From positions 7,263,501-7,327,500 of the forward strand of contig NC_070558.1 in NCBI RefSeq assembly GCF_026914185.1: 64,000 nucleotides of DNA, written 5' to 3'. Below, piece after piece: positions 3,117-52,333 of the stretch (positions are counted from its first letter, which is position 1; each line of letters begins with the position of its first letter). The position numbers were made by a program, and so were the translations under genes. The stretch is from Puccinia triticina (Eukaryota > Basidiomycota > Pucciniomycetes > Pucciniales > Pucciniaceae). Under the pieces are notes generated by a model. The model worked only from the letters and a program-made list of their open reading frames with translations, did no database searches and had not been told where the DNA came from.

Positions 3117-4346
3117 AAAAGAATCCAAGCAACTGAAAGGTTTTATTGCTTGTTAGAATACTATTTACAAAGGTATAGTTCTGAGATGAGTAGAAAAAGT
3201 CTGCACGAGTATGCACCTGAAAGCAGGGCAGAATGTGCCTGGGATCTGTGTCTGAAAGAATGTTTAAAGGGGCAATGCGCTTGGCGCGGTGCTGTCACGT
3301 CGACGGTTATACGCGCGGGAAAAAGGTCCTGTACGCCAAGCAGTTTGCAACGCAAGATACGCATGATGCCGGCTTCAGTTTATTTTTCTGTTTTGTTCTT
3401 TCTTTTCTGTCTTGTTTTCTACTCACGGGTATAAGTTGAGTTATCGCAATAACTTTGTCTTATCCTGTCTGAACGCTTCCGATGCGTCTGTTTCTAGTGG
3501 ATGAATGAATCAATGTCTGCGTTAGATTCAGGGTCTTTTCTTTTTGTGCTTGGTCTGGTATGTGCTGTACTGATGGATAGCTGTCGCTTCCAATAGTCTG
3601 CCTAGTAGTTCTGGTTGGTTCTTGGGACCAAGTCGTTCCTCAAGAGTTCTGCATAAGAACACGGCAAAGTTAGTCTTAAGGTTTTAAGTCTACTTTCCGC
3701 TTGATCTCGGGACGTACAAGGTTCTCCGTCTGGGCTGAGTTTGGCTTTGGGCGTTGACCGATAAGGTTCTAGCCTGGGTTGCTTCTGTAATTGACAAGCA
3801 ATACTTTCACGTCAGCTTCTGTGGTTAGGGCTGGGGTCTGGGACTGGACTGCAAAAGGCTTTACCTTTCATTGCAGCTGGGCTTGGGCTTGTGCCTTGAG
3901 CCAACGGTGGGCCGCTACGCTGCGCTAGAAATCAGCTAACTGCCAATTACAGCAGCGCGGCTGGCAACAGGATTTTCCAAACTCCCTGAATTTTGCAGTC
4001 CTAATTGACTGATCCCTCAGGGAGGCTTATAGTTCAATCCACGCAAGGCAAGCAGTTGAATGCTGCAAAACAGACCATGTTAGCTGCACTGTACTCCAAA
4101 TGGAATTTTGGCTCTGCATCTGGTAACCAGGATGTCCTGACTCCCTGATGCAATGGTCCTGCTGGACCATTTTGATCAGGGAGGCTCCTAGAATATTCTC
4201 ACCAGTTTAAGTGGTTTAATGCTGCGGAAAGGGCCGCGTAATCCGCTGTTAGCTCATTTTTTGTCGTAGCGTAGCGGCCCACCGTTGCTTGAGCTACCCG
4301 GGCATGCTTCCTGGAAGGTTGCTGCGGGGCTTGGTCTGTATTCCTA
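3117..4346. mobile_element. 1.23-kb insertion in gypsy RNase H, flanked by CACTATGT
   Basis: The direct repeat CACTATGT stands at 3109-3116 and at 4347-4354. If one copy and the interior are ignored, the RT/RNase H protein reads on across the junction, with a one-base slip nearby. Its type is unclear. An 8-bp duplication would suit a hAT element with ends AAAAGAATCC...TATTCCTA. A TG...CA reading (3114-4348) would suit a solo LTR with a shorter duplication. No convincing ORF is inside. The hAT-like element at 3902-4287 is nested in it. Confidence 0.75.
3902..4287. mobile_element. hAT-like nonautonomous element, copy A
   Basis: The 386-bp element starts CAACGGTGGGCCGCTACG and ends with the near-perfect inverse, CGTAGCGGCCCACCGTTG. 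It is flanked by the perfect 7-bp repeat CTTGAGC (3895-3901 and 4288-4294). There is no coding region. The ends match those of the hAT element at 17937-20204 and of six further copies in this window. Confidence 0.9.
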
Positions 4347-4351
4347 CACTA

Positions 4352-5240
4352 TGTCCCGACCCACTAACGACTTAAGCCGCGCAATCCTCCGACCAGACAA
4401 ACTCGACATCCTTTCGCGTCAGCCACCGTAGGGGGAGGCAGATTTGAGATAACAATGGGATGAAAAGCCAAACGTACACTACCACGCCTAGAAATCCGCG
4501 AACCTTGGTGGCGTCCTTTGGGGTCGGCCACGAGATGATCTTATTTACCTTGTGTTTTGACATCCGTCAGCCCTCCTTGCATACCACATGGCCAACGATC
4601 TCCAAAGCCGGGACACACGCTGCCAGTTTAGATGCTGACACCGTCAAACCCGCTTCCTCAATCCAAAAAAGGACTCGCTCCAGAATCTTGGTGTATTCCC
4701 AAACAAACCTTTGCACACCAGCATGCCAAGACAGCGCTTCGTTGTCGTAATCCGAAACCGGGCCTTTAATGCCCCCATTGTCAATGAAAACGTCCGCATG
4801 GTCCGGGATTTCCTCCTTCAGAACCCACATCATCTGCGCCTGGTAGACGGCGACAGAATTAGTGGCACCCTGCGGGAGATGGGTCAACTGAAATCGGCCC
4901 AAGGGGGTGTCAAAAGTAGTCAGGGGTCAAGAAATAGGATCTAAGGCATGTTCGTCGTATCCGCCAAGAATGTTGCCTAGCCCATAGCAGGCGCGGCCCA
5001 AAAATGATTCAACAAATTCTTCAGTAGCTGTAGGAACGCCAGCATCCTTGACTGTCACCCGGTTCAACGGCTGAAGATCATGAACAATCCGGAGCTTCCC
5101 ATTGCTCTTCAGCACGCAAAAAACCAGGGAAGAATACGAGGAGGTCGACTGCTTGTAAAGGCCGTTCCGCACTCGCTCGCGGAGAATTCGATTATATTTG
5201 TCTAACTTGGCGGCAGGTATCAGAATCTTCTTCTTTTGCC
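4352..5240 (-). pseudogene. Gypsy reverse transcriptase fragment
   Basis: Minus-strand pieces 5172-4927, 4902-4567 and 4563-4372 give the RT palm and thumb: SNGKLRIVHDLQPLNRVTVKD, FQLTHLPQGATNS, HADVFIDNGGIKGP and the tail MSKHKVNKIISWPTPKDATK...RGFLG. The catalytic YxDD-type box reads FIDNG, so its second Asp has become Asn. Frame breaks near 4905 and 4565 also show that it is inactive. Confidence 0.9.
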
Positions 5241-5339
5241 ACGGTTCATGCTTGACAACCGGGATGATTTAGGGCATCCCGTACAACTCCTTCAAGAGAC
5301 CCCACATTGACTGCTTTGATACTGACACCTGTAATGTGA

Positions 5340-6330
5340 GCCCTAGATTTGCTGGAGGAGAGGAGCAGCATTGGAGCAGTGTTGGAGCTGAAAACAAAGC
5401 TGCATCATGTCACTTCCCATCAAGTGACTACTTTTTTGTCCTGGTGCTTGATGTCTGAGAAGGTTCTGACAAAGTCCCATGCCGTCCCATCATCTGAGTT
5501 TGAGCTGAACTCAGACTCTGGGGTTGTGACATCCTGCGGGACAGGTCATCATACACCTGCACACCTCTGCACGCACAACAACAACAACAGAGAAAAAACC
5601 AAAGCCACAACCAAGAAAACACAAACAAACAACACATCAAAAAACCAACCCTCCACTCTGAGCCATACCGACACACACCATAAGAAATGCAAAAGGCCAA
5701 GAGACAAACAATGAAAGAAATCCAACAAAAACAAAGAAACAGTGAGCACAACAACAACAGGTACTGATTTCTTGAGACTGGGAGGATGTGAGCTGAATAT
5801 CTTGAGGACTGGATACACTCCCCGCACTTCTGATTTGATCTGAATCACCGCCTGTACCATTTGGCGCACCACATCTCCACCACGCTTGCAGTCTGTCCCT
5901 AGATTGCGTGCAAGCCATTGCCATAAATTTAAAACGGAGAAGAGGGGAAGAAACCCTCACCAGGGAAAATGTGATGACAGCTGGTGGCAGGTGACATTGA
6001 GTAAAAAATGTTCAGGCGCCTGAGCTACTGTGGCAAGACTCCACTATCAAAACAATGGCCCCTTTGTGGTCATTGGGGAGTCCCACTCAATGGGTTTTGG
6101 AGTATGATTGGAGACTGAACAAGAGTCTTCTTCACATCACCTGCCCTCAGGTGACCTCAATTTTTCCCTGGTGCCTACAGAACAAAAGCAGAAAGAGCCA
6201 GACACCACCGCAATTCTCACACGTGTGGCTGAAGTAGGGTCTTGATGACAAACAGTAGTCTGGGTAGTGCATACCAGGAGGGGGAACTTGCTTTTGGTGA
6301 GAAATGTCCCCGCAGGAATAACCCAACCTC
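5340..6330 (-). repeat. Second gypsy 3'-end/LTR-like copy
   Basis: This stretch has no gene. It shares blocks with 1-830: an A-rich CACGCACAACAACAAC-type stretch, the CACCACATC...CAGTCTGTCCCTAGA block at about 5867-5904, and GCATACC-AGGAGGGGGAACTT near 6268. The order is the same as at 1-830, so this is either the other LTR of an internally deleted element or a second element in tandem. The gag and protease region expected between it and the RT is missing. Confidence 0.5.
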
Positions 6331-6520
6331 TCCTCGAACCAAATGAAAAGACCTCAAGGTGGTAACACTCAACTCCCCCTCTACGGCTGTGATACACAAA
6401 AAGAAAGAAGAAACAAAACATCTTGATTGCATTACAAAAAAGTGAACATGAAGAAATGGAATGATGTTGGTGCCGAACAGCAGGAGTAGAAAAGATAATA
6501 ACATTCATAAATATTTGTAT

Positions 6521-8435
6521 TTATCGGTCGACCTGCGAAAAAAAACACAAGTGATTCAATCAGCTGCCCGTGCCTCCAGTAAACCAGGGATTGTTGGCGA
6601 CAAAAGAAAGAGCGAGTACTTCTCCGAACACCAAATCCATGGTCCCGATGATCGCGACCATACTACAAAAAAAGAGCCAACGCGGTCAGAGACAGTGCGC
6701 AAATGGGGCGCAAGAAACGGGGGGGGGATTACTCTGGCAGGAAGTGGTGTCGGGACATGAAGTCGGCGCCTGCGAGATGGGCGAAGCCAGGGGCGCGGAT
6801 GCCTAACGCAGGGCGCAAAAGCAAGGCGTCAGCAGAGCGGGACCGAGAATGGAGAGAGGGGGGCGGGGACGGACGGCAACGGTAGGGACGGTTGGAGCCG
6901 TCGCTGACGAGATAGACGCCCATCTCGCCCTTGGGAGCCTCGATGGCTGAGTAAGTCTCGCCCGGGGGGACATTGTAGCCTTCCGAGAAGAGCTTGAAGT
7001 GGTGGATCAGGGCCTCCATCGACTCTTTCATCGTCGCTCGGGGCGGCGGTGTTAGCTTATAATCGTCTACTTTGATCTGGCCTGCTGGCATTTTGTTCAG
7101 ACATTGACTATCCAAAAAAAAAAACCCCCGGATTAGGGTGTTTGTATGTGTTCTTGATTGGGAGGCGGGGGACTTTACTGGATGATCCGTAGAGATTGAC
7201 GGAATTCTTCGGTTCGACATAAGTAGCGATCGTAACAATCGCCGTTTTTTCCGACAGGCACGTCGAATTCGACTTGATCGTAGGCGTCGTAGGGCTGGCT
7301 CTTACGGATATCCCACGGGACGCCGGAGCCGCGGAGCATGACGCCGGAGAAGCCGTAGTTGAGCGCGTCGGTCACCGACACCTTCCCGATCCCGATCGTC
7401 CGCTCCTTCCAGATCCGGTTCTCCGTCAACACTTCCTCAAACTCGTCCACCCGGTCCGAAAACGCCGTCGCCCACGTAAAGATGTCGTCGAGCAATCCGT
7501 GCGGTAAGTCGAAGGCTACTCCCCCCGGGCGGACATACGCCGCATGGAGGCGGGCACCCGAGACTCGCTCGTAAAACTCCATCAGCTTCTCTCGCTCCTC
7601 AAATCCCCATAAGAATGGCGTCAAAGCTCCGACATCTACAATCAAATTCAGCAAAAAAAAAAAAAAAAAAAACACCTCAATTGAGTGGTTTACAAGCTTG
7701 GATGTGATAGCAAAACCCAGCTTTACCCATGGCGTGAGTGAGGATGGCCATGAGATGGTTGAGGATTCGGGTGATTTCGCCAAACATCGTTCGGATCCAT
7801 TTGGCTCGATCAGGCACCTCGATGTTCAACAATTTTTCGACGGCTCTAGAGTAGCACAGCTCGTTGGTCATCATGGACACGTAATCCAACCTGTCGAAGT
7901 AGGGCAAGGCTTGGGTGTAATTCTATCAAGATGACAAGATCAGTATACAGAGGATGCGGGTGGGGGCAGCAGAGACTCGCCTTGTATTCGATCAGCTTTT
8001 CGGTGCCTCGATGGAGCAGCCCGATGTGTGGATCTGCGCGCAGGATTTCTTCGCCATTCATCTCGAGGATCATCCTCAAGACGCCATGAGCGGCGGGATG
8101 CTGGGGTCCGAAGTTAACTGGAGGAAAGCAGTGAGTGATGAGGATGGGAAGATTGGGGAGAGCGAGGGGGGCGGACCGGTGAAGTGTCTCATTGTGCCAT
8201 GTTTCTTGCCCTGGCCTTCGGCGAGGATGGCTTCGGCGGATTGGCCGTGCAAGTCCTCGACGACGTTGGGGAGGCTCGCGGGCGGGGTTGAGGCTGAGGC
8301 GGCAGGCGGGGTGGATGAGCTGGAGAGGGGGCGGTGCGGGTGGCTTGGGCCTGGCCGGAGGAGCGGGGCGGTGCTGGGCGGGGCGAGTCTGGCGAGGGCG
8401 GAGAGCAGGGGTCGCTTGAAGGCCGTCGAGAGCAT
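6521..8435 (-). CDS. NDUFS2: NADH:ubiquinone oxidoreductase 49-kDa subunit (complex I, NDUFS2 type)
   Basis: Nuclear gene for the NuoD-like core subunit of mitochondrial complex I, which helps form the quinone site. I place eight exons: 8435-8177, 8117-7981, 7922-7727, 7635-7179, 7107-6875, 6802-6733, 6662-6620 and 6532-6521. They sum to 1407 nt, or 468 aa, near the usual fungal length. Family blocks seen are [88 protein letters not shown] and the end GEVDR. The first ~70 residues are Ser/Pro/Ala/Arg-rich, as expected for a mitochondrial presequence. The start was chosen at 8435 because [10 protein letters not shown] begins such a presequence. Intron 2 (7923-7980) opens with GC (GCGAGT...TAG), a GC-AG intron; the others are GT-AG, 52-91 bp. 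The last exon carries four codons including the stop. It is head to head with ATG10. Confidence 0.96.
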
Positions 8436-8572
8436 GGTGGCGTGGGGTGGGGGGTGGTGGTGGCTTCCCGGCTGGGGGATGTCGGCGTCCCTCCGAGGGG
8501 GGCTGCGGCTGACATCGCCCCGGGGGGGCTTCTTCCGCCAGGGGCCCCCGGGAGACATCCACCCCCCACGAG
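8436..8572. promoter_or_regulatory. Shared promoter region between NDUFS2 and ATG10
   Basis: Only 137 bp separate the start codons of NDUFS2 (-) and ATG10 (+). The stretch is very GC-rich, with long G and C runs and no TATA-like box. Both 5' UTRs and core promoters must lie here or overlap the coding starts. A bidirectional promoter is inferred from the geometry alone. Confidence 0.5.
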
Positions 8573-9400
8573 ATGCTCACGCGGGACGAGTTCAACGAGG
8601 GATGCCAGGAATTCATCAGCCATGCCGGCAGACACGCCCGGGGCTGGAAGTGGGAGACCCATCGCCCAACAGTTGAGTCGATCGGAGAGGAAAAGAAGAC
8701 TTGCTGACCCTCTCTCTCTTATTCTGAACAGGCGATACTAGTAAATCAAGATCTGGGGTGTCTGCACAACGAGCCAATCGACCGAACGCTGTTCTTCGAT
8801 CAAGCACCGGATGGGCGCCTCCGAGCAGAGAGCGACGTGAACGGGGGCACCGTTGACGAGCACGAGGACGAGGCCGGCCTGCCCCCAGTCGCGGCACCAG
8901 ACCACGCCGACCATGGGCCCCACGAGCGGATCAAATACCAGGCGTCGGTCGTCTATTCGGACACCTATGGCGTGCCCCAGCTCCTCTTTCAGGCGTACAA
9001 GCCAGGTCCGTCTGCGCCTCCCGGGCCCCACGAACATGCGGCTGAGATTGGCTATGTGGTAGATGGGACGCATCTAGACTTGCAGGAGCTCGTCGCCACC
9101 GATATCTTCTATCGCCTAGACGCCCCGGCTGTCTACCCGCGCATCCTGATCGGCCAGCCCGCCGAGAGGCCCGCACACCAACAGCCCGACCAACACGAGC
9201 CGGCCGTCCGGCTCCCGATCCTCACCAGGACCATCCATCCGCTCGACAACCTGCCCTACTGGGGCCTCCATCCCTGTAACACCCAGGCCGCGTTGAAGGA
9301 CATCTTGGATAACAACCACCCTCGACCCGCTCAGCACCACCATCCTCGCCTGGTCATCGAGTGCTTCTTCGCTCTCGTCTCTAGTCTTATCAGAGTTTAA
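8573..9400 (+). CDS. ATG10: Atg10-like E2-type autophagy enzyme
   Basis: Likely the E2-like enzyme that transfers Atg12 to Atg5 in autophagosome formation. There are three exons, 8573-8671, 8732-9005 and 9063-9400, giving 711 nt or 236 aa. Introns are 60 and 57 bp with GT...AG ends. The N-terminus [18 protein letters not shown] and the aromatic GWKWETHRP fit Atg10 starts. A middle acidic linker ([11 protein letters not shown]) is followed by the core strands [20 protein letters not shown], then [11 protein letters not shown]. The C-terminal [20 protein letters not shown] holds the expected active-site Cys at about residue 196 (HPCNT). Intron 2 is a multiple of three, so the frame stays open if it is retained. 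Identity rests on these motifs; Atg3 is larger and is less likely. Confidence 0.85.
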
Positions 9401-10525
9401 TCCTCTTCTGCGCTTCTGTTCCTCCGGCCATACCTTAATGGTCATATGCTCTCAGAAACGCAGAGACTTCATCTTGTTTGTCAATTCTAACCATCATCCG
9501 CTAACGCCACCTTTTTGTTGCGAAAATGGGTCGTGCTAACACCCCAAATTAGAAATCCGAAATGAAAAAAATACTCACTGAATGCACAAGCCATTGGAGA
9601 AATTTGACTATAATGTACATGCAGGGACATGTAGAAAGAATCATTGCATATCATGGAATCGGAAATTTGTAGGAATGATCAAAGAGCTGGGAAACCTTGA
9701 CAAAACACCAGAAGACTTAGCTATTTTTGTCTACCCAAACCAAATCTTCTAAAAACTAGCTTGACTATCAGGCAGTAATGAGCCAACCATAAAATACAAC
9801 TCCACAGAATCAATAAACCTGATGGAAGAAGATACCAATTTTTGGATACATAGCCTGCTGTTGACACTTATATCCTCCAAGTGTGTTGAAGAAGATGGTT
9901 TCCCTCCAGCAGGCCACAGAAAATCATGGGCAGGGAGCTTCAACATAAGTTCATCAGACACTCCGGAATCAGGAAGTGGCTGGGAGGCTGGGTATTTTGG
10001 CCCACCAGCACGGGAGATCTGTGTTATGTATATCTGGATGAGATTGCAGAGGCTCAAATATCTGGAGCAGTTGCCCCAATGCCGGGAGCTCAACTGTTAC
10101 TCCTGCTTGGCTGGTAGTGGTTGGCATTCAGAGGCCTCTAGATGCCACCCCAGATCTGACATTAGCACAGTTCCCACCCAGTCCCACACACATGACAGCC
10201 ACTTTAACATGGTTCTTTTTGCAAAAAAACAAGCTCCAGGGTGTGTGAATTTAACCCCAGCAGCTTGCTTGAGCTCAGCCGACGCATGTTTTGGAGGTGC
10301 CATCTCAACGAACTTTGGCCCTGTGGCAGAAGAAATGAATGTGTGGCGGGTGGTTGTTGGCAAGGTTTCGGGATTTTTATGTACATAGCTGTGGACAGGA
10401 TTGATGGGCTGTCAGGACGAGGAGGACGGCTCGTATACAACTGAACTGTGGATGAAACTGGAAGCTGGCGCGGCGCTGGGCGAGAAAGTCCACAGCACCA
10501 ACAGCCACCCTCCCCCACCGCAAGC
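9401..10525. other. Intergenic region between ATG10 and the MPV17-type gene
   Basis: No gene recognised. Open frames around 9750-10390 show no family motif and overlap on both strands. A block near 10110-10160 (GGCATTCAGAGGCCTCTAGATGCC) resembles one near 40960-40985, so part of it may be an old repeat. The first ~100 bases after ATG10 are probably its 3' UTR. Confidence 0.4.
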
Positions 10526-17936: not shown

Positions 17937-18105
17937 CAACAATGGGTGACTACGCTACCCATAGCGGTAGTGTAATGGTAAAGTAGCTATTTTAAGGTCG
18001 CTACTGCTACCTTACTACATTATCTGTGCATAATTTTAAAGATTTTTCATTGAAACTACACTATTGGAAGGTTTTTTTTTTTGCATTACATTACAGAATG
18101 GAAAT

Positions 18106-19850
18106 TCATTTCTTTTTGGATGACAGAATTGCCTTCAAAACCTTCCCAGCCTCGGAGAAATCCCCTGTCAGAGTGTCAGCCTTAGAGTCATCACAGCTGA
18201 CCTAAAAAGCTGCCTGTTCTACCTTTGTTACATATAAATTACTTTATATCTTTTTCATCTTAAGAGATATCCCTGTTTTGACTTCATATTCTGTTTCCTC
18301 ATGCAATTTTAACCCTAGTTACAACTTACCAATTCATTGTAACTATACTCCTTCCCTGAGTTACTGAGTTGTAGCGCCCTTGCGCAGTTGTGACGTGTCA
18401 GCGCTACTAGGCGCGCCAAACCACATGTACATATGTAAATTACATAAGCAAACTGTGAAAATTTTCGTAGTCAGGATCCCCCTTGCCTGAGGCGGATCCA
18501 CAGACTTCAGCACACCAGAACCACCACCCAGATAACTCTAGGATCACCACCAAAGAGCCTACTATACTCCCAGTATACCTACCGTCACAGGCGCCTAGGA
18601 TATTGACAGTAAGTAACCTCTTTCACTGAACCTTGTTTATCTCAGAGGTACAACTCTGTGTCTTGCTGGATCTGCCTTTTCTTCTTGCTTTGCTTCCTCC
18701 TTGATCACAGGGCTGTCCCTCCAAATCTATAGGCCTTTGCCTCCATCTTGATCACAGGGCTGTCCCTTCTTATCATCAGGCCTTTGCCTCAAAATCTAGG
18801 TTCAGGGCTGTCCCTCAGGTTTCCCTTTAAGAACCTTGACTGTCCAGAGAGAAGTCTAAAAAACTGTGGCTGGATTAAGACTTATCTAATCCAGATACCC
18901 TCCTGAGAGGAAGCTGTAGCACTTCTTGCACAGATTAGCAGCACTCTTCTGAAGAGTAGCATTGCCAGTGGACGTGCATTCCCACTAGAATAACCTAGTA
19001 CTTCTCTTCCTTCTTATCCTGCTTGGTTTCTCTCTCTCTTTCTCTTTTTTTCTTTTATAGTTGTAATTTCTTTATCCCAAGAAATCCAACTATTGCCCCC
19101 CCATTTCTTGTGTCCTGCTGTCACTATAGAGACTCAGGCTCACACAGAGGGATGTCCTCCCAACGCCACATAAGGCTTGAGACACAGTGAGACATTGTTG
19201 AAGGGAGCAGCCTTCCTTGGTTGCTTCTACATACATCCAAAGCTGCAGAGAATAGTCTCTCAACAGCACAGGAGCTTCCAGTTGCTCCAAGGTATGAACA
19301 GGCCAAGATGGCCAGCGTGGGTTAGGTTTTCTGGTTGGCCTGTTTGGAAAAGTTGCCAAGTTAGTGACATTCTTTGATATAATCTGACCTTTTGGGGAAA
19401 GGAACATACCTTCCACCACTTCAATGGAGTGCTTTTGCAATCTAAATCCTTGGGGCTGAATGGTGTGGCTTTGTGATTTCTAGAACATCGGTATCACTAG
19501 TGTTTGGCGCTGTTTTTTTTATCCTTTGCTAGTCTGAAGAAGTGCTGAAGCAATTGAAGGCCTTCAGCAACCTCTGAGCTTTCAATTCCAAAGCCAATCT
19601 CAAAAAAAGTCATCCGGTAACATGGATGCAAAATAGTGGCCATGAAGAGGGTTTTGCATTGCATTGCTTCGCTGAGGTACTTCTCCACTCGCTTCAAAAT
19701 TGCATGGTACATCGGGTACAGCAAGGCTGATTACGAAGAGGCTGCAATCTTGCTGATGAGCCCCTCTTTCAATTCGAGATACTTTGGAATGACATGTGTT
19801 CCTGTGGCCAAGTTGCCTTCCATTTCAGAAGTAAGATTAACAAACACCTA
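18106..19850 (-). pseudogene. hAT transposase remnant
   Basis: Read on the minus strand. 19724-19497 gives a segment with KRVEKYLSEAMQCKTLFMAT and LHPCYRMTFFE, typical of the distal part of the hAT RNase-H-like domain. 19306-19150 gives CAVERLFSAALDVCR and GRLLPSTMSHCVSSLMW, the hAT dimerisation motif. The solo LTR then interrupts. Beyond it, 18168-18106 restores the tail after one CAGAG duplication and ends at a TGA at 18106-18108. Stops and frame changes lie between the blocks (near 19310-19500), and the N-terminal BED finger and first catalytic Asp region are not visible. Confidence 0.88.
18174..19144. mobile_element. Solo LTR, family 2, inside hAT transposase
   Basis: A 971-bp segment starting TGTCAGCCTTAGAG and ending GACTCAGGCTCACA, flanked by CAGAG (18169-18173 and 19145-19149). 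The duplication lies inside the transposase frame, which reads through if the LTR and one CAGAG are ignored. Fragments of the same LTR occur at about 17350-17470, 20528-20700 and 24346-24887. Shared blocks include CTTCAGCACACCAGAACCAC and TTTCTTTATCCCAAGAAAT. Confidence 0.92.
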
Positions 19851-20211
19851 AGTATATCAAAGTATGCCAGTCAGTTTGCATGGCAACAGCCTGGATTGAA
19901 GACAAAAATCTCACCTCAAGCTCTTGATTGAGATTGTCAATCTCTTTCTAATTGCGCGGTAAGAAGAACACATTGTTGAATTCTCCAGGGCTGTTTTCCT
20001 CTTGATCTTCTTTCTTTCTTAGGTCGATATATGCTACGCTATCTGTTTCCTAGGGGTAAAAATGACCCCTGTCCTGAAATCACGCTACGGCTTAAGGTGA
20101 AAATTCACCGCTACGGTTAGCGGTCATGTAGCGGGGCAGTCATTCAAATCATTACGCTACTGGGAGATCCAGATAATGTAGTGTAATGTAGCGACCCATT
20201 GTTGCTACAGG

Positions 20212-33677: not shown

Positions 33678-33990
33678 CAATGGTGGGCCGCTAAGCTAAA
33701 CTATCCGTAGCGTGCGCTATCCACTAGTTTAGTGTTGCGTAGTTCCTGACACAGTGCTTTTAGCTGTAGCGCCCGCTACGGGCCGCTAATAGCACTATCA
33801 GCATTTTTAGTGGTTGAATAGCACTGCTAGCGCTGATAGCGGCGATAGAGGCCCTGTAGTTTCAAGGGGTGCCTGTTAGCAGTAGCGGGCAATCACTGTC
33901 CGCTATCAGAAAACCCCGTCATTTGTAGTTTAGATCCGCTACGCTGCGCTGAACTACGGACTAAATGTGTCGTAGCAGACCACCGTTGGA
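33678..33990. mobile_element. hAT-like element, copy C
   Basis: Starts CAATGGTGGGCCGCTAAG and ends GTAGCAGACCACCGTTG. The interior is rich in GTAGCG/CGCTAT words that pair with each other. No perfect 7-bp duplication is visible; the flanks GTTCTCT and CTTCTCT are similar but offset by three bases. It begins about 90 bp after the Helitron helicase frame ends. Confidence 0.75.
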
Positions 33991-34054: not shown

Positions 34055-34382
34055 CAACGGTGGGCCAATGCGTTACGTTACGATGTTTAGGCCTAAACGT
34101 GTAACGCATCAAGCGTTATTTTTAAGAAAAAGGTGTTAATTGTATCAAAAAAATATTGAATTTTTGATACTTTACAATAAACTACAATATGTTTTTGGCT
34201 GTATCTATGAAAAATGGCCAATATTTGCTGTTATTTAGCGTATTTTTGCGTATTTTTGCACCCGTGGGTGTTATAGTTAACTTATTTTATACACTCGATA
34301 ATCTTAATTTTCTGTATTGTAACTTATTTTTCAATACTTTACAATACTTTACGGTTACGTTTAACTGTAACGCCCACCGTTG
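34055..34382. mobile_element. hAT-like element, copy D
   Basis: The 328-bp element starts CAACGGTGGGCCAATGCG and ends GTAACGCCCACCGTTG. It is flanked by the perfect 7-bp repeat CTGCAGG (34048-34054 and 34383-34389). The body is AT-rich with GTTACGTTACG words at the edges, unlike the GTAGCG-rich copies, but the outer ten bases are the same. Confidence 0.9.
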
Positions 34383-37209: not shown

Positions 37210-37749
37210 CAAGGGTGTAACAGCTACGCTACAAAAAGCATAGCGTAGTGTCTTTCTTAAATCACTGTGCTGTGCTGAAGGTAGCGGCCCAACTGCTGCA
37301 CTACCGCTTTTTGGGTTGGAGAAATAGCGGGGACCCGCTATCTGCAGCAGTAGAGCAACACTGGACCCGCTACGCTACCGCTTTTTGGGCTTTCTGTGTA
37401 GCGGTCCCCCGCTGCGCTGCGCTGAATGAACGCTTTTTTCAGAAAAGTGCAGCGGTTACATCATTTCTGGCGCAAAACTCCATAAAAAGTAAGCAGAGGT
37501 GTAGCTAATTTGCTGCAAAAAGCGTAGCGTAGCGTTTTTTGGATCGCTGTGCTGTGCTGAAAGTAGCGTACCCGCCCACTGCGCTACCACTTTTTGCGTT
37601 AAAGAAAGAGAGGGGACCCGCTACTTTCAGTGGTAGCGCAGCAATGGAGACGCTGCGCTACCGCTTTTGGGGCTGGATGCGCAGCAGTCTTCCGCTGCAA
37701 TACGCTAAAAGGGTGCTTTTTGTAGCGTAGCGTAGCGTTTACACCCTTG
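37210..37749. mobile_element. hAT-like element, copy E (540 bp)
   Basis: Starts CAAGGGTGTAACAGCTACG and ends GCGTTTACACCCTTG. The interior repeats GTAGCG, GCTACCGC and CGCTTTTTG words in both orientations and can fold on itself along most of its length. No perfect 7-bp duplication remains. Confidence 0.75.
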
Positions 37750-39179: not shown

Positions 39180-39740
39180 ATTCCCTGAGCTTGCGCGGGC
39201 TCAAAGAGGGGGGGATTGGTTACAGAAATCCACCATGTAACAACATTAACAGGACATTTTTTACCTGGCACTGCCAGCATAATTGGCTGGGTTGAGGTTA
39301 TCCCAGTTAAACTGGGATGAACTCAACCAATTTAAACTTGGTTGATCTCAACTCATGAAATATAAATCCAAGGTGCCCCCCTTGGGTTTATATTTCATTG
39401 GATGAAATCAACCCATTTTAAATTGGTTGAGTGCATCCCAGTTAAACTGGGATGACTTCAACCCATCCAAATATGCTGGCAGTGTGGGGGGATGGATAGT
39501 GAGGAGTTTGAAATGGGGGAAAATAAGCAAGCACCTGGTGATTTTAATGGTGCAAAAGGCACAGTGAAAATCAGAATTCTAGAGGGAGGTATTGGGGAAA
39601 ATATGACAGGGTGACATCTCCCCTGCCATTTGGCTCGTTCCTGTAGGGCAAGACATGCCATGATGCCACTTTGGAGGCAAATCCCTCGTTCGGAGGTCGC
39701 TACGCTCCCCCGAGGAGGGTATGCTTGTGTTAAGTTCGAA
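39180..39740 (+). repeat. Dispersed repeat R4, with nested CACTA-like MITE
   Basis: Matches 31088-31570: CCCTGAGCTTGC-C-GGCTCA, TTGGTTACAGAAATCCACC, GGGGGAAAATAAGC and GCAAAAGGCACAG recur in order. It ends in a GGAGGTCGCTACGCTCCCCC palindrome. It is split by the MITE at 39269-39484. Its right edge is only ~125 bp from the start codon of the HIT gene. Confidence 0.7.
39269..39484. mobile_element. 216-bp CACTA-like MITE
   Basis: Starts CACTGCCAGCATA and ends TATGCTGGCAGTG, flanked by TGG (39266-39268 and 39485-39487). The interior is a near-complete palindrome with ATCCCAGTTAAACTGGGAT on both arms. The CACT start with a 3-bp duplication is the CACTA pattern. The R4 paralogue at 31190-31200 lacks it. 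Confidence 0.82.
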
Positions 39741-42470: not shown

Positions 42471-43027
42471 ACTGTACATAGTCAAGCCTCACTCAACCCT
42501 CTTGATGACCGGTATAAATCAATCATTGAGAGGACCCAAGCTGTTCAATGACTGGTCTGGTCATCAAGAGGTTGTATGTTCTCTTGATGACTGGTTAGAC
42601 CGTTCATCAAGAGGACAACCGGTCTAACTTAGCTAATTCCCTCCTCGGGGGAGCAAAGCAACCTCCAAAGGAGGGACTTACAGGCTATGTCAACCCTGCA
42701 GCAGTAGAGAATTAGCACTTTTGGCAGAGACTTTTTTTAAAATCAAGCTGCCGTCTTTGTTTCTGAACCTCTTTTTCTCGGGTCAGCCTAAATGCACTCC
42801 AAACTTTTACTTCATGCACTCCACATTTTTGGCTTTGGGGGGCCAGCACTCCAAAATTGACCAAAATAGGGGAGTGCAGCTAGATGCACTCCAAAAAAAA
42901 TGGAGTGCAAGTCCAAGCACTCCACCTTTTCAGTAAAGGATTTTGGCTTTGCACTCCAGCTGGCAAATACCAAATGGAGTGCATTGGGATGCACTCCAAG
43001 TCTTTTTTTTTTTGGTGTGCCCACAGC

Positions 43028-44103
43028 AATCACACCTCTCAATGACCGGTCTGGACCGGTCATCAAGGGGCACACAACCGGTCATCCAGAGGACTCATAC
43101 CTCTCGATGAACGGCGCGGACCGGTCATCAGTCACACCTCTCGATGACCGGTGTGTACCAGTCATCAAGGGGAGGTGCTACTCTTGATGACCGGTAAAGA
43201 CCGGTCATCAAGGGGACTCCCACCTCTTGATGACCAGCGCGGACCGGTCATCAGTCACACCTCCCAATGAACGGCACAGACCAGTCATCAAGAGGACTCA
43301 CACCTCTCGATGATTGGTCAGACTGGTCATTGAGGGGACTCACACCCCTCAATGACCAGTCATCACCGGTCATCGAGGTGAGTCACATCTCTTGATGACC
43401 GGTCAGACCAATCATCAAGGGGACTCACACCTCTCAATGACCGGTCATCACCGGTCATCAAGGTGAGTCACATTTCTTGATGACCGGTCTGACCGGTCAT
43501 CAAGGGTAATAACACCTCTCAATGACTGGTGTGTACCAGTCATCAAGGGGAGGTGCTACTTTCAATGACCGGCTGGTCTGACCGGTCAGCAAGAGGAGAT
43601 GTTACTCCCCTTGATGAACGGCACAGACCGGTCATCAAGAGATGGGACTCACCTCAATGACCGGTGATGACTGGTCATCAAGTGTTATTACCCTTGATGA
43701 CTGGTGATGACCAGTCATCAAGTGTTATTACCCTTGATGACCGGTCTGACCGGTCTGACCGGTCATTGAGAGGTGTCAGCTGGTGTGAGTCCTCTCAATT
43801 ACCGGTCTGTGCCGGTCATTGAGAGGTGTGAGTCCCCTCAATGACCGGTCTGTGCCGGTCACCGAGGGGAGTAGCACCTCCTCTCAATGACCGGTCAGAC
43901 CAACCGGTCATCAAGAGTAGCACCTCCCCTCAATGACTGGTACACACCGGTCATCCAGAGGAGGTGTTATTCCCCTTGATGACCGGTCTGACCGGTCATT
44001 GAGAGATGTGACTCACCTCAATGACCGGTGATGACCGGTCATTGAGAGGTGTTATTACCCTTGATGACCGGACTGACCAATCATCAAGAGGTGTGAGCCC
44101 TCT
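43028..44103. repeat. Satellite of palindromic TGACCGGTCA units, part 1
   Basis: About 25-30 units of CCTCTCAATGACCGGTC followed by GACCGGTCATTGAGAGG or variants (TTGATGACCGG...CCGGTCATCAAG). Each unit is itself an inverted repeat, so every monomer could form a hairpin. Spacers are GGTGTGAGTC or GAGGTGTTATTACC. Three looser units precede it at 42490-42620. It stops at the LTR at 44104 and continues at 45591. Confidence 0.92.
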
Positions 44104-45590: not shown

Positions 45591-45905
45591 CCTCTCAATG
45601 ACCAGTGGTGACTGGTCATTGAGAGGAGGTGTTATTAGCCTTGATGACCGGTGTGACCAATCATCGAGGTGTGAGTCCCCTCAATGACCGGTCTGTGCCG
45701 GTCATCAGGAGGTGTGACCGGTCCGCGCCGGTCATCAAGAGGTGTGAGTCCCCTTGGTGACCGGCACAGACGGGTCATCAAGAGGAGATGTTAATGCCCT
45801 CGATGACCGGTCTGTGGTGATTTCCCTCAATGACCAGCGGTCCTGTACAGACCGGTCATTGAGAGGAGATGTTAATCCGCTCAATGCCGGTCTGTACCGG
45901 TCATG
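45591..45905. repeat. Satellite of palindromic TGACCGGTCA units, part 2
   Basis: Continuation of the array at 43028-44103 beyond the solo LTR, about seven units with the same GACCGG core and CCTCTCAATGACC edges. A stray unit is at about 47190-47210. After 45905 the GGAGTGCA/TGCACTCC word set begins. Confidence 0.88.
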
Positions 45906-46210
45906 GATATCAGGAGGATAGAGTGGGGTGTGTTTGTACATAGCCCGGTTGAAGTTGTAGGCACTCCAGCCAGAGCCAGAGTGCACAGTACTGCACTCCC
46001 CTTTTGAGGAGGAGAAATATCAGGAATGGAGTGCTGGGGGAATGCACTCCAATCTGATGGAGTGAGACTCATGGGCACTCATTAGATTTCCTGGCCACTG
46101 GAGTTCTTTGTGGTGCACTCCAAAAAGTCTTGAGTCCCCAGTTCTGCACTCCAATTGACTTGGAGTACTCTAGTCTGTAATCCAACAATCATTGGAGTGC
46201 ACACTCCATA

Positions 46211-46698
46211 CAATGGTGTATCCGCTGCGCTGCATATAGCATAGCGAAGCGGTTAGCGCAGCAATTTTTTGGGTCGCTGCGCTACGCGCTACGCGCAGCG
46301 GGCAGATCGCTGCGCTACGCGCTTTTTGATTTTTCTGGAAAAAAAAATCAAAAAATAGCGCGCTAAAGAAGCAATCACGTAGCGGTCAGCGCCGCTTTTC
46401 TCCATGCCATGTGGGATCCAAAAAAAAAAAGGAAAAAGGGTTTAACATACATAAAAACATGTTTAGAACATAAAACTGTTCCGCTATCCGCTAATTTAGG
46501 CTAATTTAGCGGGTAGCGTAGCAAATTTTCGCTTTTGCTAATGGCCCTGGGAGGGTAGCGGACAATCGCTGCGCATAGCGAGTAGCGCAGCAGTGTTCTT
46601 GCTGCGCTATTGCTTTTTGGTCTGGTCACGTAGCGGTCAACCACTGCGCTACGCTAAAAGGCCGCTTTTTTTAGCGTAGCGCAGCGGATACACCGTTG
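46211..46698. mobile_element. hAT-like element, copy F
   Basis: The 488-bp element starts CAATGGTGTATCCGCTGCG and ends CGCAGCGGATACACCGTTG. Perfect 7-bp repeats CTCCATA (46204-46210 and 46699-46705) flank it. It lies between two GGAGTGCA-type blocks. The interior is dense in GTAGCG, GCGCTACGCG and AGCGCAGC words. Confidence 0.92.
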
Positions 46699-47195
46699 CT
46701 CCATACACTCACTTTTGGAGTGCTTTTGGGATTTTTTTGGAGTGCATTTAGGCTGACCCTTTTTTCTCTAATTTACATTTCTGGGATGGCTTAAGCTGTC
46801 CCCTTCTTTCGACTATTTTTTCTCATCCTCAACTCCTCTGGTGGAGCTGCAATCATAGCTGTAACATTATCAATTTCAGATTCTGTACAGTGCAAAATGT
46901 GGAATGCACAATGAAGTGGGCACTTGTCAGTCACAAAAAAGGACTTCATGGGGCACCCAAGGCCCCAAAAAGTTTGTAAAATATGTACAAAGAAACTCCA
47001 TGATGTTGTGCACATTTTGCTCCCCCAAAATTATATTACGTGGTGACAAATGACGCGTCCAGAGAGGATTGAAAAACATCATTTTTCTAATTCTCTACTG
47101 CCACGGGGTTGACATAGCGAAGTCCCTCTTTTGCAGGGTCCCTGCGGGACGGTGTCCCCCCTCCAATAAAGGGACTCAGTTAAGTTAGACAACCG

Positions 47196-48319
47196 GTCAT
47201 CGAGAGGACCCTCCGAGAGAAGGCATGGGTGGTCTGGTCTACCAAAACCCGTCGGTTGAAGAGCCTGAACTGGCGAGCTTAACCAAGCCTCTCTGGAGGA
47301 GAGCCCTGCAGGGTATCTGTCTAACAGAGAGGCTTGCCCCCAAGAGGCAAATTCTGGCGTGAGAGCTGACAGACCGTAGTCCTCGCCAACACCCAAATTC
47401 CACTAAATCAATGCCTACACATTTTTCACGCAACATACGGGGTCATGAGTAGCACGGCCTTGTAGCCTGGCTGCTTGCGCAGCCAGCCATCCATCCATCA
47501 TCTATCCATCCCCCCAGAGCAGTGCTAGACATCCTTTCAAAAAACACAATGAGCTGTTTTCCAAAAGTCAAACTCTTGTTTTTTTTCACTCCTGTACACT
47601 CCACTATCCAATAAACTTGCTGTATCCTACCTGTACTGTGACAAAAACATAGTACAGAAGCCACCATAACTGTACACTTTGGCATGTGTATTTAGCTCTT
47701 ATGTACTTGCCTTGCATGTACAAAGGTACGGACAATCCAAGAATCTTGGTAAGATGATGTTACAAGCTTTGTAACTTCAAGACTGTTTGAGCTAATGACA
47801 TGTGATCTATGTAGGATTGAAGGCAAGATGCAGGCCTTCAATCTGGCACCAGGGCGGCCTGATTGGCCCGCAGGAGGCAAATTTAGTGTTGTGTTGAAGT
47901 TTGACACCAGCCAAATGGTTGGAGGTGGTCCGCAGCGCTCACGCCAAATTTCCCCGCTTACATACTCCCAAGTCCCTCCTTCGGAGGCTCGCGCTTCGCG
48001 CGAGGGGCGCCAGCCTGCCAACTCAGAAGGGAGGACTAAGTTCGCTGAACTGGATGCATTGGCAAGCTCAACGGCCCCTTGGCCAATGCATCCGCGATAC
48101 TCCTTGCTGTCGGCACTGAAGCATATCCCAACGCCGGCGGCTTCGTTCTTGCCGGGTTCTCAAGCGAGCCTAACAGGGTCTTCTGCGCCAAATCCATCTC
48201 ATTCATGAAACAGACCGGGGACAGTCCCTCTCAGCCAGCAAGGCTGCATTCTTCCGGTTGACAAGACCTAGGTGTGCAGCATAGGGGACCCCGGGTGTGA
48301 GTCCCTGTTGTACATACAA
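47196..48319. other. Repeat-rich intergenic stretch
   Basis: An R2-like end GAGCTTAACCAAGCCTCTCTG is at about 47276, and a GGGA palindrome (CCTTCGGAGGCTCGCGCTTCG) at about 47970. A GGCTGCTTGCGCAGCC palindrome is near 47467. The frame 47795-48208 has no recognisable motif. No gene supported. Confidence 0.4.
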
Positions 48320-48552
48320 AATGCGTTACCATTAACGAGTAACGGGCCTTTTTCCCGTTACCATTAAGCTCCGTTACTGCCACGAGGGAAAAGTTGATTT
48401 AGAGACTCCAATAAACAACGTATCAAAACAAAGAAACAAAAAGAGGAAAAAAACGACTATCGGTAACGCGCTGCCGTTACTGGTAACGGTAACGGTAACG
48501 CGCAAAAATCGATAAGTTGCCGTTACTGGTATCGTATCTACCCAGTGTTGCT
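48320..48552. mobile_element. hAT-like element, copy J (one end lost)
   Basis: The right end reads GATACGATACCAGTAACGG on the inverse strand after CAACACTGGGTA, matching the family. The body is made of GTTACC, GGTAACGG and CCGTTAC words. The left end lacks the CAAC-GGG box, and no target duplication was found, so it is truncated or decayed. Confidence 0.6.
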
Positions 48553-49577
48553 GCGCGTCGTCTGGACGGGCAGGATCTTCATCGATTGCTCCCGCCGTGT
48601 ATGTTGTTTGAAAGATGAGAGAGAGAACAATCAAGCCCTGTTCTTTGCAAAATCAGTTGAAATCAGTTGTGGTGTGAAAGGCGGACAAGGGGACGAGGCT
48701 TGGAAAGAAGGGAGTTGGGAGCGATTGGATCAGAGTAGATAAGGTTTTAAAATAGATTTGTCGTCTAATTCAATGAATTTTACGATCAGGTCTGTGAATA
48801 AATTTGGTTTCATCTTGTGTAATGGTCCGTAGGATCTGGGAGGAGAAAACGATAGGGAAGAAGTGATGGAAGGAAAGGCTTACGGTTGAGCAGAAGTGAG
48901 GACTGCCACCATGGATGAGACTACCATGGATGAGACTGCCAGGTTGCGGGAGTCGAGCGGCGATCGGCTGGGGACAACTGACGAGCTTTTATCTTGGCGG
49001 TGTCGCCCCCACAAAAGCAAAACGGCGGCCTGCTTGTGGTTTCCAAGCGCAGACGAGATTGCATTTTTTACAGCGTCCGCAGCCGCAAGGAAGCCGATGG
49101 GCCGCAGAGTCGGTGAACCGCGCACACTTGAAACCTTGAGCCGTGCGGGATATCCGGTAGACAATCCGGGATAGCTGGTAGATGACCGCGGATCACACCA
49201 GATATCTAAGATCCGAGGTATCCAAGCCCGCGGCTGTGGACGGATATTCCTCAACCCCACATTATCATAACTTTGGCACACTCCTATGTATAGGGATGGC
49301 AATTGGGCGGGCCCAGCAACAGGCCAGGTTTGGGTTGGCTGTTGGGGGAAATTTGCAATGTCAGCCCAACCCAACAGACCCACAACCTCAAGCTTAACTA
49401 AGCCTGTACAGGCTGGAAGCAGTATCAAGCAGCAGAGCTGTCCACACCAGGGGAGGCCTATGCCTTGAATGTCATAATTCCCACATGATGATTTTTTTTA
49501 TTTGGGCTGAAAACCCTTTATTTTGCCTTTCTCAGCCTGTAGCTGCTTTGCTGTTCACATCATGATCCACCCAAAAG
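48553..49577. other. Intergenic stretch, no gene recognised
   Basis: GC content is moderate around 48900-49250, with short frames on both strands but no motif. At 49291 TAGGGATGGCAATTGGGCGGG is a hAT-type end of a second family (compare 41893); its partner end was not found. Confidence 0.35.
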
Positions 49578-49966
49578 CAACAAAGGGTAGTTACGTTACG
49601 TTGTGTTATCCGCGCAATTTTGGTAACGTAACTACCCCCGTTATCCGGGGCCCCCTGTTACTTTACTAGTAACGGGGTCATTTCAGGCCCCGCGCGTAAT
49701 GTAACGGGCCTGATTTTTGAGGCCCGTTATCGCGTTATCCCCCGGATAACGCGATAACGGACCATTTAAGGCTTTTTAGCCTCATTTTTTGCCTGTTCTC
49801 AAGGGCTCTGCGCGCCCGGATAACGCAACAAGTATAAAAAAAACCAGCTCAACGTGTTGCAATAACGTAATCGCACTGCCGTTACGCGTAACGCGTAGAT
49901 AACGACGAAAATTTTGTTACGTTACCGTTTCCTACGCGTTACGCGTAGCGTAACTACCCTTCGTTG
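49578..49966 (+). mobile_element. hAT-like element, copy G
   Basis: The 389-bp element starts CAACAAAGGGTAGTTACG and ends GTAACTACCCTTCGTTG, flanked by the perfect 7-bp repeat CCAAAAG (49571-49577 and 49967-49973). The body uses GTTACG, TTATCC and GGATAACGCG words, which form several internal palindromes. Copy H is its inverted, near-identical relative 500 bp downstream. Confidence 0.93.
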
Positions 49967-50481
49967 CCAAAAGTCAATTCTAAGGCCTTTTTCAAGATTT
50001 TTTCAAGTCTGGCAAGTTGTACAGGACTCATGGGTATCCCCTGAGAATCAGAGCAAATTCTTCATTTTTTAAAAAATGGATCATAAAGGCCTTGAAATTA
50101 GCTCTAAATTTATACTTTTATCCTATTGTGAACCCCCCTAATAAAGACATACTTCTTGTTATTTTTTTTTGATCACTGCTCATTATTTTTATAATGATTT
50201 TTGAAAACCATCAGTTTTGTGTCCTGATATGACTTGTTTTGGTGTGCCTGGGCTGCTTGATCCACTTGTCTCAGTGTAAAAAAGTTCAAACTGTGATTTT
50301 ATAAGGACTAGAATTCATGGCGGCTGTGCCGCACTTTCAAGTGTCCAGCTCACCACCAGTGTGGCAGTGATTATCTCTCCTACATCTTCTACAACTAAGG
50401 CTGCGGAGTCAATCCAATTGTCTGCCCAAATTTACAACACATCTTCACCCTCCCTATAGAACCTTTGTTATCATACACTAA

Positions 50482-50811
50482 TAATGATCTACGTGTTACG
50501 CGCAGCAGCGGTGCAATTAACTTATTGCACCACATTAAGCCGTTTTTTTCATGCTCATTGCGTTATCCTGGCGCGCAGAGCCCCTGAGAATGGGCAAAAA
50601 ATGCGGCTAAAAAGCCTTAAACGGTCTGTTATTGCGTTATCCCCCGGATAACGCAATAACGGGCCTCAAAAATGAGGCCCGTTACGTTACGCGCGGGGCC
50701 TAAAATGGCCCCGTTACTAGTAAAGTAACAGGGGGCCCCGGATAACGGGGATAGTTACGTTACCAAAATTGCGCGGATAATGCAACGTAACGTAACTACC
50801 CTTTGTTGCCT
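50482..50811 (-). mobile_element. hAT-like element, copy H (inverted relative of G)
   Basis: Read on the minus strand from 50811, it starts CAACAAAGGGTAGTTACG and follows copy G closely through the GGGGCCCCCTGTTAC and GGATAACGC-ATAACG blocks. The last ~55 bp including the far end are missing, so no target duplication can be read. G and H together form a 1.2-kb inverted repeat with a ~515-bp spacer. Confidence 0.85.
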
Positions 50812-50822
50812 TGTCCCTACCT

Positions 50823-51120
50823 AGATTAGATTGTCAAACTTTCCCAATGCCCCTTATCCTCTGATTTGTGCGCGCTCTGCTGCAACAGATTTTCATTTGT
50901 GATATCTTTGTTGAGATTCCAGATCCTTCTATTCATTTTCATATCATATTCATTACTGCCCTCACCCACAAGTTGTTGACATGTACATAGCCTAGTCCAT
51001 TTCAATCAACTCATTGGTTCTTTTCTCATCTTCTCCGCGCCATCATCTGAGCCGCATCCGGTGAGCACTCCCATCTCAAGCTCTTGAGGTCATCTTTGAG
51101 TATCCTCTGAGATTGTGTTA
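50823..51120. repeat. LTR family 1 fragment
   Basis: Shares CGCGCTCTGC, TCACCCACAA, GACATGTACATAG, CAATCAACTCATTGGTTC and GAGCCGCATCCGGTGAG with the LTRs at 1311-1852 and 51457-51952, in the same order. The 5' part is missing. It begins a few bases after copy H ends. Confidence 0.75.
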
Positions 51121-51414
51121 ATCAATAATTATTTTAACAAGTTCAGTCACCAACAAAACCTCATGATAATAGGGGGTTTCACAATAAGGAAACCTGGGAA
51201 AGTTTTTGAGCGCTTGCGAGTATTGTTATGAGGATGCTCAGGGCAATTTCTTGCGGGACTTCACACCAAATTTTTAAGCGAGTATGTCACCTGCGAGTAA
51301 AGAAATTTAGTGCTGTGGAAAGCAAAAATGCTTATTGCAAAACCCCCTAATTGTTCTCAGGCCAATTCAGTGCCTTCACTGATTGGAGACAAACTCATAT
51401 TGTACAACTTCAGG

Positions 51415-52333
51415 CAACAATGGGAAGTTACTTATGTTATGTTATCCAGAGGGATTTGTTGGATTTCCATTTCTTCCTTCTGCCTCTTCTCCTCTCAACA
51501 GTCCTTGTGTGCCATTCCATCTTGTCTTATGCTTGTCTCCACCTGTGTTGTCCCATAAGTTGTGGTCATACTAGCTTGTCTTAACAGCCTTGTGACATCA
51601 ATCCCTGACTGTACTTGCCTGATTAGTTTTCCATTTATGTTTGACACTCTTCTGCGCGCGCTCTGCCTTTGATTGCCCGAATGTCACCAATCTCTCCCAG
51701 AGCTCCATATGTTTCCATTCCCTTCTATGAATATTCATTTTCACTCACACCCACAAACTGATACATTGTACTTAGTCTATATATACATAGCTTAGCACAT
51801 AACAATCAACTCATTGTTTCTTCTTCTTCATTATCCGCGCCTCCTATCAGAGCCGATCCGGTGAGCTCTTATCCCCTCACTGTCCCTTCTTGAGCCCAAA
51901 GGCTCATCTCAGTGCTTTCTTTGTGCGGCGGTCTTCACTTGAAATCCCTTCAGGATTTTCATAATGTAACTTACCACGTTTACCAGATAACACATTATTT
52001 TGATCTGGTAAAATGTGCCTGTGAATGTTTGGATAACATAATGGAGGGGGCTTTCCCCCTCAATACCACAAAAAATAATGCCAGTAACGCGCTAACAGTG
52101 TTATCTGGCGCAAAAATACTGGGAAATGGGCAAAAACCCCGTGTTATCTGCATTTTATCCTCCTAAGATTGTGGTCCTAAGATTGCAGTGGATAATGTGA
52201 TGGGTCTAATCAGGAAAAAAATAGAAAATTAATGTAACTGAAATATTGTTGCCATTAGCGCAACAATAACCATACCAATTAAGTTATGTCATCCGTTACT
52301 TTTTGTTACATATAATGTAACTTCCCATTGTTG
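51415..52333. mobile_element. hAT-like element, copy I, with nested solo LTR
   Basis: The element starts CAACAATGGGAAGTTAC and ends GTAACTTCCCATTGTTG, flanked by the perfect 7-bp repeat CTTCAGG (51408-51414 and 52334-52340). The nested LTR at 51457-51952 accounts for about 500 of the 919 bp, so the element itself is about 420 bp. The body is AT-rich with GTTATC words. Confidence 0.93.
51457..51952. mobile_element. Solo LTR, family 1, inside hAT copy I
   Basis: A 496-bp segment, TGTTGGATTTCC...AAATCCCTTCA, flanked by GGATT (51452-51456 and 51953-51957). It is colinear with the LTR at 1311-1852 in its middle and 3' portions. It is younger than the hAT insertion it sits in. Confidence 0.88.

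What the first reader, a model, noticed from the sequence alone, without database searches (positions are those of the whole stretch)
3902..52333. A hAT-like family with constant CAAC...GTTG ends, 7-bp target duplications and self-pairing bodies
Copies A (3902-4287), B (17937-20204), D (34055-34382), F (46211-46698), G (49578-49966) and I (51415-52333) all start close to CAACRRTGGG. All are flanked by perfect 7-bp repeats: CTTGAGC, CTACAGG, CTGCAGG, CTCCATA, CCAAAAG and CTTCAGG. hAT elements are known for 8-bp duplications, so seven is unusual. Five of six sites begin CT and three fit CTNCAGG. The bodies share little linear sequence but use the same kind of word (GTAGCG or GTTACG and inverses), as if the interior were replaced or re-amplified while the ends were kept. 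Copies C, E, H and J extend the family.
Basis: partly seen in the sequence, partly recalled or inferred. Interest (0 to 1): 0.88.

Follow-up and report, generated by a model that had tools for sequence, protein, structure and literature searches.

The report
hAT transposons leaving 7-base target repeats
The six sequences belong to a large family of jumping genes, in a genome that looks like a rust fungus, that duplicates seven bases of target DNA where most of its relatives duplicate eight; such a lineage was named hAT7 in 2025, and the differing interiors are mostly ordinary, separately amplified subfamilies.

Summary
All six copies have CAAC/CAAT...GTTG ends and perfect 7-bp target duplications. 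Of the 24 end pairs I picked from the first 100 places, 14 are perfect at 7 bp and 21 match at 5 or more of 7; none of the 23 profiled exceeds 4 of 8 at 8 bp. Coding copies with these ends carry a hAT-type transposase; five such end pairs outside the window have perfect 7-bp duplications. Window copy B is a decayed coding copy. One nested insertion has uninterrupted relatives with the 7-mer once. Other hATs of this genome, with TAGGG/TAAGG ends, give 8 bp. Interiors were not replaced: F and D are subfamilies with 39 other scored places each, A has a 97% full-length sister, and I is a 400-bp-type element split by a 495-bp insert. The lineage fits hAT7, named in December 2025 from Puccinia and Melampsora (PMC12730594, passages). 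Possibly new: the non-coding swarm, the symmetric nTnnnAn target, the 7-versus-8 contrast inside one genome.

The parts
3902..4287 (.). Copy A, 386-bp non-coding element; target repeat CTTGAGC at 3895-3901 and 4288-4294
   Evidence: 97% full-length sister of 386 bp at L070:151-536, which has its own 7-bp repeat
17937..20204 (-). Copy B, 2268-bp decayed coding element with hAT transposase remnants on the minus strand; target repeat CTACAGG; also holds stretches repeated elsewhere in the window
   Evidence: (C1:7283030-7283347:-)
19124..19321 (-). hAT C-terminal dimerisation remnant inside copy B
   Evidence: Pfam Dimer_Tnp_hAT 23.8 bits, cut-off 21.4; 44 of 59 residues identical to L069 transposase
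19497..19730 (-). hAT RNase-H-fold remnant inside copy B (weak, below cut-off)
   Evidence: Pfam hAT-like_RNase-H 16 bits, cut-off 27; overlaps the protein match
34055..34382 (.). Copy D, 328-bp non-coding element; target repeat CTGCAGG
   Evidence: 40 scored places of 73 candidates, itself included
46211..46698 (.). Copy F, 488-bp non-coding element; target repeat CTCCATA
   Evidence: 40 scored places of 244 candidates, itself included, mostly near full length; fold z -11.2
49578..49966 (.). Copy G, 389-bp non-coding element; target repeat CCAAAAG
   Evidence: 79% over 176 bp to the L077 element
51415..52333 (.). Copy I, 919-bp element; target repeat CTTCAGG; positions 1-43 and 539-919 match 400-bp-type elements
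51458..51952 (.). Insert inside copy I (its positions 44-538); the matches on both sides overlap by 6 bases on the partner elements, so a 6-bp duplication is possible
   Evidence: L081 and L006 elements; part of it repeats at 50981-51069
50487..50808 (-). Truncated second copy of G (G positions 1-323, 89%), inverted as judged from its CAAC end
33678..33988 (.). Probable older family member (CAATGGTGGG...CCACCGTTG), no clear target repeat
37633..37749 (.). Fragment of the F subfamily (F positions 372-488, 77%)

Best explanation
The six copies belong to a hAT-superfamily cut-and-paste DNA transposon lineage that makes 7-bp target duplications, most likely the lineage published as hAT7 in rust fungi. 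Coding copies of about 3.8-4.0 kb encode a hAT transposase. Short non-coding copies keep the CAAC...GTTG ends and are rich in TAGCG/GTTAC/GATAAC-type words like those in the coding copies' outer 400 bp. Most likely the transposase binds the ends and those words, cuts the element out and joins it across a 7-bp stagger at sites of weak symmetric consensus nTnnnAn; gap repair leaves the duplication. Shown: ends, 7-bp duplications, single-copy 7-mer in uninterrupted relatives of one insertion site, transposase remnants inside such ends, word distribution. Inferred: binding of the words, mobilisation of the short copies in trans, and that the stagger is set by this transposase.
For: Six of six window copies perfect at 7. 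24 end pairs picked from the first 100 places, all on contig 1: 14 perfect, 21 with at least 5 of 7; none of the 23 profiled above 4 of 8. 21 pairs read from the first 100 places: 18 fit 7 bp alone, the other 3 miss one base at 7 (7 of the 21 are also in the 24; two near-duplicate pairs dropped). Coding copies: L069, C13, C8, L099, L100 and window B have 7-bp duplications, 6 of 7 looked at; for the C7 copy the second end was not in the piece fetched. Dimer_Tnp_hAT 43.9 bits in L069 and 23.8 bits in window B; Hermes transposase is the best solved-structure relative, weakly (E 0.0023). Empty site: the C8 copy's flanks joined with one GCGCTAA match 40 scored places of 123 candidates at 88-97%; of ten read, the five of 129 bases align without a gap, junction included. 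Target: T at -6 with A at -2 precedes 793 of 3510 ends, T at -7 with A at -2 only 331 of 3510; reversed-pattern background 28 and 35 of 535. Words: 10 and 10 in the two outer 400-bp bins of L069 against 0-3 inside, 13 and 10 in L100 against 0-1; L099 weaker, 8 and 3 against 0-1. Subfamilies.
Against: 3 of 24 pairs do not fit 7 bp in register (L003 2/7, L072 2/7, L084 4/7). L003 and L084 match better at 10 (8 of 10 and 7 of 10), as if three bases lay between repeat and left end; unexplained. In the empty-site test the five 130-base relatives read carry one extra base just outside the left 7-mer; I take it for a subfamily variant, since gapless 129-base relatives exist and the right flank has no eighth base. 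L100's dimer domain is below Pfam's cut-off (15.9 of 21.4); the L099 pieces given to one search did not include its dimer domain, which tblastn finds at 73%. Ends of the 33-39% relatives L107-L110 were not found, so the edge of the 7-bp clade is unknown. No published hAT7 sequence could be compared. No transposition was observed. The link from most short copies to coding copies rests on ends, words and duplication length; L071 (950 bp) is the one short copy whose listed matches lie in the transposase stretch.
Confidence: 0.92

Rival explanations
1. Ordinary 8-bp hAT elements whose eighth base was miscounted or lost by mutation.
For: hAT elements usually make 8-bp duplications (PMC12730594 passage), and TAGGG/TAAGG-end hATs of this genome do so. 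Five of ten uninterrupted relatives read have one extra base beside the 7-mer.
Against: The eighth base matches on neither side in the six window copies; no profiled pair exceeds 4 of 8; five uninterrupted relatives fit without a gap; target preference is stronger in the 7-bp frame than in the 8-bp frame.
Confidence: 0.02
2. Element interiors grow by local palindrome formation or are swapped while the ends stay.
For: Five bodies fold far better than shuffles and bodies differ between copies.
Against: Bodies recur with their ends in subfamilies; I is an ordinary body with an insert; similar words crowd into the coding copies' outer 400 bp.
Confidence: 0.06
3. A non-hAT superfamily with 7-bp duplications (P element/Galileo, Kyakuja) mobilises them.
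For: Galileo appears with 7-bp target sites in a search listing (PMC2775673) and Kyakuja makes 7 bp (PMC12730594 passage); KDZ transposases are abundant here, 185 matches.
Against: Coding copies inside these ends carry hAT domains; the two Kyakuja families described have no terminal inverted repeats. No P-element model was searched in the genome.
Confidence: 0.03

Closest known systems
hAT7 (hAT families with 7-bp target duplications, Pucciniales; PMC12730594, 2025, passages read)
   Same: hAT-type transposase and 7-bp duplications; reported from seven Puccinia species and Melampsora, some families without a TET/JBP gene
   Different: The main text has no occurrence of 'MITE', 'subterminal', 'target site preference' or 'CAAC'; its Figure 1 shows termini, but figures are not held. 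Here most copies seen are short and non-coding. Sequence comparison with the published families was not possible.
hAT5 and hAT6 (5-bp and 6-bp hATs; named in the same paper's passages)
   Same: hAT elements with a duplication length other than 8
   Different: Other lengths, and placed by that paper in a lineage with Blackjack and other animal hATs, while hAT7 clusters with fungal and Ac/Tam3-type hATs
Ac-like hATs with nTnnnnAn 8-bp sites and subterminal repeats (recalled, no call)
   Same: CA...TG ends, symmetric T/A target letters, word-rich subterminal regions
   Different: One base shorter between the T and the A here
TAGGG/TAAGG-end hATs of this same genome
   Same: Same Pfam dimerisation domain, same genome
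   Different: 8-bp duplications and a different-looking dimer domain; tblastn with the L069 domain gave nothing better than E 0.3 in L039-L068

Membership tests
hAT superfamily | hAT transposase (RNase-H fold, C-terminal dimerisation region) | tested here: met
   L069 43.9 bits, window B 23.8 bits, cut-off 21.4; L100 below cut-off; L099 25.9 bits to the RNase-H fold, cut-off 27
hAT superfamily | 8-bp target duplication (usual, not universal: hAT5, hAT6 and hAT7 are accepted) | tested here: not met
   7 bp in window, sample and coding copies
hAT superfamily | Short terminal inverted repeats | tested here: met
hAT7 | 7-bp target duplication | tested here: met
hAT7 | Transposase clusters with published hAT7 families | not testable with these tools
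   Published sequences are in a supplement I had no look-ups for; the protein database was off
hAT7 | Host in Pucciniales | tested here: inconclusive
hAT7 | TET/JBP gene (some families only, not required) | tested here: inconclusive
   0 matches, but the tool states that nothing rang in any control genome either
Non-autonomous (MITE-like) hAT derivatives | Short, many copies, ends and duplication length shared with coding copies | tested here: met
Kyakuja (KDZ) | KDZ transposase, 7-bp duplication, no terminal inverted repeats | tested here: not met
   Inverted repeats present; transposase in coding copies is hAT
P element / Galileo | P-type transposase | not tested
   No P-element model was searched in the genome; Pfam scans of pieces of L069, L099 and L100 showed none

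The most novel reading that the evidence does not exclude
In one genome two hAT lineages differ by exactly one base in the strand-transfer stagger while a symmetric T...A target contact is kept (nTnnnAn against the 8-bp frame), which would make this a natural one-base change in transpososome geometry that could be traced to specific transposase residues.
Probability: 0.45. Interest if true: 0.5.

Novelty: new member of a known kind. Interest (0 to 1): 0.3.

Why it matters
Duplication length is used to sort transposons. This is further evidence, with within-genome controls, that hAT elements can hold a 7-bp rule across many subfamilies, and it gives annotators of rust-like genomes a simple key (CAAC...GTTG, 7 bp) for a large class of short repeats. 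A matched 7-bp and 8-bp pair in one genome makes the question of what sets the stagger testable.

Tried and rejected
Rejected: 8-bp miscount; CTNCAGG as the target rule (4 of 24); interior replacement. Led nowhere: ends of L101/L102 and of the distant relatives L107-L110; TET/JBP search (uninformative); pairing of C, E and J. The T/A target test on TAGGG-end hATs gave no sharp contrast (45 against 38), which does not help the geometry reading. Structure prediction was available and not used. Paper searches failed and readings. Only passages of PMC12730594, PMC4455052 and PMC6679389 were read; PMC2775673 is known from a search listing only.
Full report
What is there. A scan of the window for such end pairs found these six and no other 7-bp pair; displaced flanks gave about 0.9 per displacement. 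The window is G000:C1:7263501-7327500 of a 122.8-Mb genome in 18 contigs.

Beyond the window. CAACRRTGGG occurs 1777 and 1733 times on the two strands against 265 and 270 for the reversed pattern. From the first 100 places, all on contig 1, I picked 24 end pairs: those under 1 kb and two of about 4 kb, one of which (L070) proved to be a 386-bp element with a variant second end. Fourteen are perfect at 7 bp, six have 6 of 7, one has 5 of 7, and three (L003, L072, L084) do not fit in register; among the 23 profiled, none exceeds 4 of 8 at 8 bp. L003 and L084 match better at 10 (8 and 7 of 10), as if three bases lay between the repeat and the left end; I cannot explain this. From the first 100 places, which selects ends with T at -6 and A at -2, 21 pairs were tested, 7 of them also among the 24: 18 fit 7 bp alone and 3 miss one base at 7 (two pairs repeating the C1:4145246 site were dropped).

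Coding copies. L069 holds a 4015-bp element with CAAC ends, repeat GCAAAGC, and an ORF with Dimer_Tnp_hAT (43.9 bits) and a weak RNase-H fold match. A search with that ORF gave 178 matches from 130 scored of 1127 candidates, one of them inside copy B of the window. Further coding copies show CATGAGG (C13) and GCGCTAA (C8), read from the ends printed, CCGGGGA (L100, 3857 bp) and CTCCAGG (L099, 3798 bp). A seventh copy (C7) could not be closed because its second end was not in the piece fetched. In the window, copy B carries the hAT dimerisation remnant at 19124-19321 (23.8 bits, cut-off 21.4; 44 of 59 residues identical to L069) and a weak RNase-H remnant at 19497-19730. It also holds stretches repeated elsewhere in the window.

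Empty site. The C8 copy sits in another repeat. Its flanks, joined with one copy of GCGCTAA, match 40 scored places of 123 candidates at 88-97%, most of them over bases 1-129. I read ten: the five of 129 bases align without any gap across the junction; the five of 130 bases carry one extra base just outside the left 7-mer. The latter could look like an eighth target base, but the right flank of the insertion has none, and gapless relatives exist; I read it as a subfamily variant. Several matched places lie within about 400 bp of CAAC ends listed (for example C1:563517, 2709312, 7615221), so the host repeat is probably a member of the same family.

Controls in the same genome. Of six other hAT copies whose ends I tried to close, four closed, all at 8 bp, with TAGGGGTG or TAAGGATG ends (CTGGGTAC, CAATAGAT, CTTGAGGC, CTTCGAGA; two families); two did not. 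Seven of seven TAGGG end pairs read from the listing fit 8 bp alone; one of them is the CTGGGTAC copy again. These pairs were selected for T and A letters in the 8-bp frame.

Target. Among 3510 CAAC ends, T at -6 with A at -2 precedes 793 and T at -7 with A at -2 precedes 331; the reversed-pattern background gives 28 and 35 of 535. The 24 perfect duplications (6 window, 14 sample, 4 further coding), read on both strands, favour C or G first, T or C second, and by construction the mirror image at the other side. So the site is a weak palindrome nTnnnAn; CTNCAGG is one case of it (4 of 24). The same test on TAGGG hATs gave 45 against 38 and does not discriminate.

Interiors. F has 40 scored places of 244 candidates, itself included, mostly near full length, the others at 81-93%; D has 40 of 73, itself included, the others at 75-96%, some partial. 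A has a 97% full-length sister; G matches the L077 element at 79% over 176 bp. Copy I matches 400-bp-type elements at its positions 1-43 and 539-919 and not between, among the 30 other elements compared; the two matches overlap by 6 bases on the partners, so 44-538 is an insert, perhaps with a 6-bp duplication. Enriched words in 27 short elements (CGCTAA, ACGCTA, CTACGC, CGCTAC and the like) resemble the six words that I counted along the coding copies (GTAGCG, GTTACG, GTAACG, GTAAAG, GATAAC, CGATAA), which crowd into the outer 400 bp of L069 and L100 and, more weakly, of L099; I chose those six by eye. Self-pairing is real and follows, I infer, from such words lying in both orientations. That they bind transposase is inferred from recalled knowledge of Ac-like hATs.

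Known or new. PMC12730594 (December 2025; passages read) describes twenty TET/JBP-bearing hAT families with 7-bp duplications from six Puccinia species, and others without that gene from P. striiformis and Melampsora larici-populina, and names them hAT7. The features that I could test here fit. Its main text has no hit for MITE, subterminal, target site preference or CAAC; figures and supplements were not seen. A search for miniature inverted, Puccinia, hAT and target site duplication listed two papers, neither on this to judge by title and abstract. I therefore file the finding as a new member of a known kind, with the short-copy swarm and the target symmetry as possible additions. The 2015 Repbase paper already used hAT families annotated '7-bp TSD' as an example of a text query (PMC4455052, passage), so such entries may have existed earlier.

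Noticed in passing
window 1847-2949, minus strand: Retroelement pol pieces: integrase core and zinc-binding domain, and RNase H of a reverse transcriptase.
   Followed up: no
window 7175-7825 and 61756-62607, minus strand: Exons of the NADH dehydrogenase 49-kDa subunit and of an ALG11-type mannosyltransferase.
   Followed up: no
window 43077-44103 and 53793-53938: Tandem array with period near 43 bp rich in GACCGGTCATC, and a 73-bp unit twice in a row at 97%.
   Followed up: no
L003 and L084: Two CAAC elements whose flanking repeats match best with three extra bases beside the left end.
   Followed up: no
window 51458-51952: A 495-bp insert inside copy I, possibly with a 6-bp duplication; part of it repeats at 50981-51069.
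   Followed up: partly
L070:1-4271: A 386-bp CAAC element, 97% like copy A, sits near a dimerisation-domain ORF of another hAT.
   Followed up: partly
L108, L111, L112: A group of near-identical 37% relatives has TAGCG/GTAAC-type words beyond its coding end; its ends were not found.
   Followed up: partly
whole genome G000: KDZ transposases are abundant: 185 matches from 150 scored of 350 candidates.
   Followed up: no
window 39266-39486: 90% match to the interior of the 950-bp element L071 (its positions 227-447), outside the CAAC pairs found.
   Followed up: no
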